From Cepaea nemoralis (Eukaryota > Mollusca > Gastropoda > Stylommatophora > Helicidae), in the NCBI GenBank assembly GCA_014155875.1, contig JACEFZ010012659.1, forward strand, positions 186,001-250,000: a DNA stretch of 64,000 nt. The letters run 5' to 3'. The notes beneath the pieces are model-generated. The model was not told the origin of the DNA, made no database searches, and was given only the letters and a program-made list of their open reading frames with translations. This document shows positions 25,868 to 28,150 of this stretch, piece by piece. Positions within the stretch are counted from its first letter, which is position 1; every line of letters starts with the position of its first letter. The position numbers and the translations under genes are program-made.

Positions 25868-28150
25868 GTGAATGAGTTTCTTTAGTATTCTGCAACACTT
25901 GCATTCAGCAGCTCTTGTTTGCTTCTCAACTGATTTGTATACTATTCTGTGAATGAATTTGTATACTATTCTGTGAATGAATTTTTATACTATTATGTGA
26001 ATGAATTTGTATACTATTCTGTGAATGAATTTGTATACTATTCTGTGAATGAATTTGTATACTATTCTGTGAATGAATTTGTATACTCTTCTGTGAATTA
26101 ATTTGTATACTATTCTGTGAATGAATTTGTATACTATTCTGTGAATGAATTTGTATACTCTTCTGTGAATGAATTTGTATACTCTTCTGTGAATGAATTT
26201 GTATACTATTCTGTGAATGAATTTGTATACTCTTCTGTGAATGAATTTGTATACTCTTCTGTGAATGAATTTGTATACTATTCTGCAACACTTACATTCA
26301 GCGGCTCTTGTTTGCTTCTCAACTGATTTGTATACTATTCTGTGAATGAATTTGTATACTATTCTGTGAATGAATTTGTATACTATTCTGTGAATGAATT
26401 TGTATACTATTCTGTGAATGAATTTGTTCACTATTCTGTGAATGAATGTGTATACTATTCTGTGAATGAATTTGTATACTATTCTGTGAATGAATTTGTA
26501 TACTCTTCTGTGAATGAATTTGTATACTCTTCTGTGAATGAATGTGTATACTATTCTGTGAATGAATTTGTATACTATTCTGTGAATGAATTTGTATACT
26601 ATTCTGTGAATGAATTTGTATACTCTTCTGTGAATGAATTTGTATACTATTCTGCAACACTTACATTCAGCGGCTCTTGTTTGCTTCTCAACTGATTTGT
26701 ATACTATTCTGTGAATGAATTTGTTTACTATTCTGTGAATGAATTTGTATACTATTCTGTGAATGAATTTGTTCACTATTCTGTGAATGAATGTGTATAC
26801 TATTCTGTGAATGAATTTGTATACTATTCTGTGAATGAATTTGTATACTATTCTGTGAATGAATTTGTATACTCTTCTGTGAATGAATTTGTATACTATT
26901 CTGCAACCTTACATTCTGCGGTTCTTGTATGCTTCTGAACTGATTTGTATACTACTCTGTGAATGAATTTGTTTACTATTCTGTGAATGAATTTGTTTAC
27001 TATTCTGTAAATGAATTTGTTTACTATTCTGTGAATGAATTTGTATACTATTCTGCAACACTTGCATTCAGCGGCTCTTGTTTGCTTCTCAACTGATTTG
27101 TATACTATTCTGTGAATGAATTTGTTTACTATTCTGTGAATGAATTTGTATACTATTCTGTGAATGAATTTGTTTACTATTCTGTGAATGAATTTGTATA
27201 CTATTCTGTGAATGAATTTGTATACTATTCTGCAACCTTACATTCTGCGGTTCTTGTATGCTTCTCAACTGATTTGTATACTATTCTGTGAATGCATTTG
27301 TTTACTATTCTGTGAATGAATTTGTATACTATTCTGTGAATGAATTTGTATACTATTCTGTGAATGAATTTGTATACTATTCTGTGAATGAATTTGTATA
27401 CTATTTTGTGAATGAATTTGTATACTATTCTGTGAATGAATTTGTATACTATTCTGTGAATGAATTTGTATACTATTCTGTGAATGAATTTGTTTACTAT
27501 TCTGTAAATGAATTTGTTTACTATTCTGTGAATGAATTTGTATACTATTCTGCAACACTTGCATTCAGCGACTCTTGTTTGCTTCTCAACTGATTTGTAT
27601 ACTATTCTGTGAATGAATTTGTTTACTATTCTGTGAATGAAGTTGTATACTATTCTGTGAATGAATTTGTATACTATTCTGTGAATGAATTTGTATACTA
27701 TTCTGTGAATGAATTTGTATACTATTCTGTGAATGAATTTGTATACTATTCTGTGAATGAATTTGTATACTATTCTGCAACCTTACATTCTGCGGTTCTT
27801 GTATGCTTCTCAACTGATTTGTATACTATTCTGTGAATGCATTTGTTTACTATTCTGTGAATGAATTTGTATACTATTCTGTGAATGAATTTGTATATTA
27901 TTTTGTGAATGAATTTGTATACTATTTTGTGAATGAATTTGCATACTATTCTGTGAATGAATTTGTATACTATTTTGTGAATGAATTTGTATACTATTCT
28001 GTGAATGAATTTGTATACTATTCTGCAACGTTACATTCTGTGGTTCTTGTATGCTTCTCAACTGATTTGTATACTATTCTGTGAATGAATTTGTATACTA
28101 TTCTGCAACCTTACATTCTGTGGTTCTTGTATGCTTCTCAACTGATTTGC
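25868..28150 (-). repeat. 24-bp satellite with higher-order units, inside a LINE reading frame
   Basis: Dozens of copies of tgtgaatgaatttgtatact plus attc. About ten spacers (starting near 25886, 26284, 26653, 26902, 27055, 27233, 27553, 27777, 28025 and 28104) break them into higher-order blocks. Each spacer encodes, on minus, the LINE segment KSVEKQTRAAECKCCRI. The leftmost 24-mer (ctgtgaatgagtttctttag, 25868 onward) reads ILKKLIHR, the form expected in the LINE; the others read IVYKFIHR. Minus-strand open frames up to 263 codons follow from the period being 8 codons. Some spacers have a 1-bp deletion (gcaacctta for gcaacactta). Confidence 0.9.

What the first reader, a model, noticed from the sequence alone, without database searches (positions are those of the whole stretch)
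25868..28150. A 24-bp satellite that grew in frame inside a LINE coding sequence
Seen: the 24-bp units and their spacers translate, on the minus strand, as KSVEKQTRAAECKCCRI plus repeated IVYKFIHR, and this sits exactly between LINE-G segments (CEAQSC upstream, TELSNKNSVLKK downstream). The leftmost unit keeps the presumed ancestral form ILKKLIHR. The period equals 8 codons and spacers were co-amplified about ten times. Inference: slippage in the LINE made the 24-mer, then larger duplications made higher-order units. It captures the birth of a satellite from a mobile element, ancestral unit still in place.
Basis: partly seen in the sequence, partly recalled or inferred. Interest (0 to 1): 0.8.

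Follow-up and report, generated by a model that had tools for sequence, protein, structure and literature searches.

The report
Minisatellite grown inside a dead LINE
A stretch of a long-dead jumping gene in a mollusc-like genome has stuttered into about 70 copies of a 24-letter repeat at what looks like one place; its origin can be read letter by letter, but this way of making repeats is already well known.

Summary
The array is real: 71 24-bp units and ten 56/57-bp spacers inside a decayed LINE (window 25,881-28,149). Three parts of the reading fail. (1) No satellite family: all 55 perfect and all 35 one-mismatch 24-mers lie at two places, the window and a related stretch on contig C20276 with 35 units and six spacers, probably the other haplotype (unproven). 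(2) The leftmost unit (ILKKLIHR) is not the ancestor: of 20 array-less copies read (about 15 distinct loci), 19 fit the array monomer better, one ties. (3) 'In frame' means little: the 5' LINE flank is full of stops, half the spacers are frameshifted, and 92% of shuffled 24-mers have an open frame. Likely start: slippage or unequal exchange, perhaps between two CAGAA copies 24 bp apart (at the seed in none of 29 copies examined, and not intact in C20276), then block duplication with the neighbouring 57 bp. A clean new member of a known kind: a TE-derived single-locus minisatellite.

The parts
28150..28720 (-). 5' LINE flank (sense), decayed reverse-transcriptase end with CEAQSC next to the array
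   Evidence: 39 further rows in the own genome at 69-80% identity; weak RT similarity
28094..28149 (-). spacer 1, type B (56 bp), continuous with the 5' LINE flank
28014..28069 (-). spacer 2, type B
27766..27821 (-). spacer 3, type B
27541..27597 (-). spacer 4, type A (57 bp)
27221..27276 (-). spacer 5, type B
27044..27100 (-). spacer 6, type A
26892..26947 (-). spacer 7, type B
26643..26699 (-). spacer 8, type A
26274..26330 (-). spacer 9, type A
25881..25937 (-). spacer 10, type A, the only one followed by the edge (non-amplified) unit
25938..28093 (-). 71 units of 24 bp, consensus CAAATTCATTCACAGAATAGTATA, in blocks between the spacers
25700..25868 (-). 3' LINE flank (TELSNKNSVLKK...); its left end is approximate and meets another dispersed repeat (25,535-25,750)
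   Evidence: relatives align through it

Best explanation
A single-locus, two-component minisatellite that grew in place inside one old, dead LINE copy. Shown: a short stretch of LINE tail (57 + 24 bp) supplies both components, the 'spacer' and the unit; other LINE copies carry this stretch once, without an array; a second place in the genome has a shorter array with the same two edges. Inferred: the first 24-bp duplication came from slippage or unequal exchange, plausibly between CAGAA copies 24 bp apart. A second exchange, bounded by CAAAT inside the array, brought the 57-bp block along. Unequal crossing-over or conversion then spread blocks of (spacer + n x 24) and homogenised the units, while the edge unit, left out, drifted. 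I saw no sign of selection on the peptide or of any function.
For: Joined array-less sequence: 51 matches in the own genome (40 of 577 candidates scored); 16 lie in the two array loci and 35 elsewhere, of which 27 start at or before base 50 and end at or after base 135 of the query and so span joint and seed unit in one piece, with lengths -10 to +3 bp from the query. 0 of 28 LINE-flank relatives carry a 24-mer within 5 mismatches. 24-mer pattern with up to 3 mismatches in 3.47 Gb: 116 hits, 106 in the two arrays, including all 55 perfect and all 35 one-mismatch hits; reversed-pattern control 2. Second locus C20276: 35 units and spacers B B B B B A, same edges. Paired CAGAA at the seed: present in the window copy, absent from the 20 copies and the nine. 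Repeated variant strings show block duplication within the array.
Against: Ten of the 116 pattern hits lie elsewhere (2-3 mismatches, not listed by the tool) and were not examined; that is more than the control's 2. The LINE assignment of this decayed copy is weak on protein evidence alone (RVT_1 E 0.015, below its cut-off; tblastn pieces E 5e-4 and 1e-3) and rests mainly on the DNA relatives. The seed repeats are uncertain: in C20276 the second CAGAA reads CATAA; the CAAAT pair 57 bp apart is in neither edge and in 1 of 29 LINE copies (at 56 bp), so it is seen only inside the array; other lags in the edge sequence score as well as 24.
Confidence: 0.92

Rival explanations
1. A pre-existing 24-bp satellite inserted into, or was captured by, the LINE.
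For: Array monomer and edge unit differ at 4 of 24 positions in the window.
Against: No other place has perfect or one-mismatch monomers; LINE copies contain the spacer and a monomer-like stretch natively.
Confidence: 0.03
2. The C20276 locus is an old segmental duplication rather than the other haplotype, so the array-length difference is between paralogues, not alleles.
For: Only about 20.6 of 56.6 kb of C20276 matches the window (blocks of at least 250 bp above 88%), with unmatched stretches up to 13.9 kb; block identities are 88-96%, and even the four best flank blocks differ by 3-4% in substitutions. One further block matches out of order (window 45,313-44,692, inverted). The copy-number control (PF00562) did not complete.
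Against: The matching blocks keep order and orientation from window 3,673 to 63,127; C20276 has an empty site for the window's 6.8-kb LTR element; among 20 LINE stretches read, four pairs on different contigs are near-identical (0-5 differences), as in an assembly that keeps haplotigs.
Confidence: 0.3
3. One reading: recent birth with the ancestral unit preserved at the left edge.
For: Only the left edge is continuous with the 3' LINE flank, and only type A spacers keep the ancestral state at two fixed sites (a T and the base missing from type B) where type B is derived.
Against: LINE copies favour the array monomer over the edge unit (19 of 20, one tie); spacer tree.
Confidence: 0.04

Closest known systems
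TE-derived single-locus minisatellites (slTRs) of the human genome (Ahmed and Liang 2012, PMC3389668; abstract and first part of Results read)
   Same: Array inside a TE copy, unit drawn from the TE, found at one locus, grown by local duplication; 7,276 human cases, of which they list 601 for L1 after setting the L1PA subfamilies apart
   Different: Mollusc-like host, 71 units, two component units with block structure; at about 28% GC it would fail their 40% GC filter
Minisatellites seeded by 5-10-bp flanking direct repeats (Haber and Louis 1998, as described in the review PMC6947457; passages read)
   Same: A 5-bp direct repeat at exactly the period in the window copy
   Different: A second, 57-bp unit is co-amplified, whose seed repeat is seen only inside the array
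Satellites from retrotransposon-derived tandem repeats (PMC7004042; title and start of abstract seen in a search listing)
   Same: TE-derived tandem repeat as source
   Different: By its title and abstract that work concerns satellites in long arrays; this one stays at one locus

Membership tests
TE-derived single-locus minisatellite | unit sequence belongs to the TE | tested here: met
   array-less LINE copies carry it once
TE-derived single-locus minisatellite | array lies inside a TE copy | tested here: met
   LINE on both sides
TE-derived single-locus minisatellite | one locus | tested here: inconclusive
   two places; single-locus only if C20276 is the other haplotype
Satellite DNA family | long arrays at many loci | tested here: not met
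   about 2.2 kb and 1.2 kb at two places; arrays missing from the assembly cannot be excluded
Expressed or selected repeat protein | frame kept through the array | tested here: not met
   5 of 10 spacers carry a 1-bp deletion; stops in the 5' flank, although the 3' side is open to 25,670
Non-LTR LINE of the kind annotated 'endonuclease-reverse transcriptase' in sea slugs | reverse-transcriptase similarity | tested here: inconclusive
   host copy only weak; an open frame in related locus L023 is clear. RTE/BovB-like is recalled from the motif, not tested

The most novel reading that the evidence does not exclude
One copy-specific small change in a dead LINE created a CAGAA pair 24 bp apart and set off the 24-bp repeat. 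An exchange between an expanded and a non-expanded allele then capped the array with a non-amplified spacer and unit and brought in the 57-bp component, so the whole birth, including the triggering mutation, can be read from two haplotypes and dozens of array-less siblings.
Probability: 0.25. Interest if true: 0.45.

Novelty: new member of a known kind. Interest (0 to 1): 0.27.

Why it matters
It is a well-resolved worked example of how a minisatellite starts: source element, array-less siblings, both edges and two array states are all in hand. It also suggests that the edge unit of an array need not be its ancestor: homogenised internal copies can keep older states while the excluded edge drifts. 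The general phenomenon is already documented.

Tried and rejected
Rejected: coding selection on the array (frame breaks; 92% of 20,000 composition-shuffled 24-mers have an open frame on the strand). Rejected: dispersed satellite. Rejected: edge unit as ancestor. Led nowhere: lag-24 self-similarity of the edge sequence is not unusual. The Pfam scan of the 3' side gave only a below-cut-off CtIP_N match. My first parser mis-framed the C20276 array because of a 2-bp insertion (second half ignored); its 35 units come. Order of the 24-bp and 57-bp events: unresolved. On rechecking the CAAAT pair proved absent from both edges and nearly all LINE copies, and C20276 matches the window only in blocks; I therefore lowered the novel case from 0.35 to 0.25 and raised the paralogue rival from 0.2 to 0.3.

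Never answered: the haplotig control (Pfam PF00562 in the own genome), last asked. Not examined: the ten weak 24-mer hits elsewhere, and 7 of the 27 junction-spanning places, which I did not fetch.

Full report
Tandem Repeats Finder places a period-48/72 array at 25,933-28,105, with period-24 rows inside it. Both components begin with CAAAT in the consensus. The window is rich in tandem arrays anyway: with periods of 7 or more they cover 26% of it, 17% of contig C20276 and 9.2% of the 28 LINE-relative loci.

The host is an old LINE. The 571 bp beside the array (28,150-28,720) find 39 further rows in the own genome (3.47 Gb, 26,579 contigs) at 69-80% identity, plus C20276 at 91%; only 40 of 2,226 candidates were scored. 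Protein evidence on the decayed copy is weak: RVT_1 E 0.015, below cut-off, and two tblastn pieces at E 5e-4 and 1e-3 against an open frame in locus L023, the second running over the array-less joint. That L023 frame is clearly a reverse transcriptase; its named relatives include endonuclease-reverse transcriptases of the sea slugs Plakobranchus ocellatus and Elysia marginata. The host is therefore probably a mollusc (inference). Resemblance of the tail to RTE/BovB-type LINEs is recalled, not tested.

The array came from the LINE. I joined the 5' flank to the last spacer, edge unit and 3' flank and searched the genome (40 of 577 candidates scored). Of 51 matches, 16 are in the two array loci. 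Of the other 35, 27 start at or before query base 50 and end at or after base 135, so they cover the joint (56/57) and the seed unit (about 106-130) in one piece with lengths -10 to +3 bp from the query; two more start at base 54, inside the joint's margin, and six cover one side only. None of the 27 has room for an array. Some of these places are twin copies of one locus (below). None of the 28 flank relatives L018-L045 has a 24-mer within 5 mismatches, and several align continuously across the joint.

The array exists at two places, perhaps one locus in two states. All 25 matches of the edge region lie on C11710 (the window's contig) or C20276. The monomer with up to 3 mismatches occurs 116 times; 71 + 35 = 106 are in the two arrays, with all perfect (55) and one-mismatch (35) hits among them; ten lie elsewhere with 2-3 mismatches, and the reversed-pattern control gives 2. 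Blocks of C20276 match the window in order and orientation from 3,673 to 63,127, but they add up to only about 20.6 of its 56.6 kb (at least 250 bp, above 88%), with unmatched stretches up to 13.9 kb and one block out of order. Four of the best flank blocks differ by 3.0, 3.1, 4.1 and 4.0% substitutions, and the LINE flank by 39 of 988; other blocks are as low as 88% identical. C20276 lacks the window's 6.8-kb LTR element. Its array has 35 units and spacers B B B B B A. Among the 20 LINE stretches, four pairs on different contigs are near-identical: L076/L077 (1 of 246), L085/L086 (0 of 251), L083/L089 (4 of 246), L088/L090 (5 of 238); a fifth close pair, L080/L082, lies on one contig. A further pair I tried, L091/L092, was not close. 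That is what an assembly with retained haplotigs would show. I therefore read C20276 as the other haplotype, unproven.

The edge unit is not the ancestor. In the 20 stretches fetched (of 27 spanning places; about 15 distinct loci), the internal monomer form fits better in 19, ties in one and loses in none. In the 28 flank relatives it is never worse, and is better in all nine that align well. Site by site in those nine, when aligned to the array form, relatives support the array state at three of the four unit positions and are mixed at the fourth; alignment to the edge form weakens but does not reverse this. In the spacer tree the leftmost copy sits inside the type A group (support 77), and the LINE outgroup joins elsewhere with weak support. 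In fairness, type A as a whole keeps the ancestral state at two fixed sites, including the missing base, where type B is derived.

How it grew. The window's edge sequence holds CAGAA twice, 24 bp apart, matching the unit length; none of 20 LINE copies has a CAGAA pair 20-28 bp apart, and of nine others two have one, 27 bp apart and well upstream of the seed. C20276 reads CATAA at the second place. A CAAAT pair 57 bp apart bounds the type A spacers inside the array, but it is absent from both edges and, within 50-62 bp, from 28 of 29 LINE copies (L021 has it at 56). The 24-bp start therefore fits slippage or unequal exchange at short direct repeats, the mechanism that the review PMC6947457 attributes to Haber and Louis (passages read); the 57-bp step is less well explained. 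Later growth was by blocks: the string 'A, T23A, C11T+T23A' and the ending 'T23A, T6G, then B' each occur twice in the window, and spacers 8 and 9 are identical. Relative age: types A and B have 4 fixed differences in about 40 columns, and both ends (B first, A last) are shared by the two places, so the spacer duplication probably predates their split.

Place among known things. Ahmed and Liang (PMC3389668; abstract and first part of Results read) found 7,276 human minisatellites (23%) to be TE-derived, with 5,747 of 5,932 clusters at a single locus, and argue for local expansion. This locus is a further, unusually legible example; their 40% GC filter would have dropped it. Paper searches were not aimed at this locus, and I make no claim about print.

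Noticed in passing
window 46346-61168: A 48/52-bp tandem array (46,346-47,361 and 55,092-61,168) is split by a Ty3/gypsy-type LTR element (47,361-55,090) whose 849-bp LTRs are 99.8% identical; gag-like (weak matches only) and pol frames are open.
   Followed up: partly
window 44348-46161 and 61169-62751: Inverted repeats (86-90% identical in pieces, about 1.5 kb in all) flank that whole 48-bp array, as if it were the core of a larger terminal-inverted-repeat or foldback unit; a related piece lies at 33,752-34,126.
   Followed up: no
window 18603-25382: LTR element with 735-bp LTRs 98.1% identical, absent from C20276, which keeps an empty target.
   Followed up: partly
window 25535-25750, 29894-30088, 4716-4949, 7233-7446, 8265-8499, 10555-10784, 15163-15290, 44551-44678: A short dispersed repeat family (roughly 100-230 bp, about 72-88% identical) adjoins the LINE tail and recurs through the window; SINE-like by size, not identified.
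   Followed up: no
L025, L035, L038, L045: Several LINE-relative loci also carry long tandem arrays of other units, so minisatellites are common in this genome.
   Followed up: partly
window 42363-42444: tRNA-Ser (GCT) gene on the minus strand.
   Followed up: no
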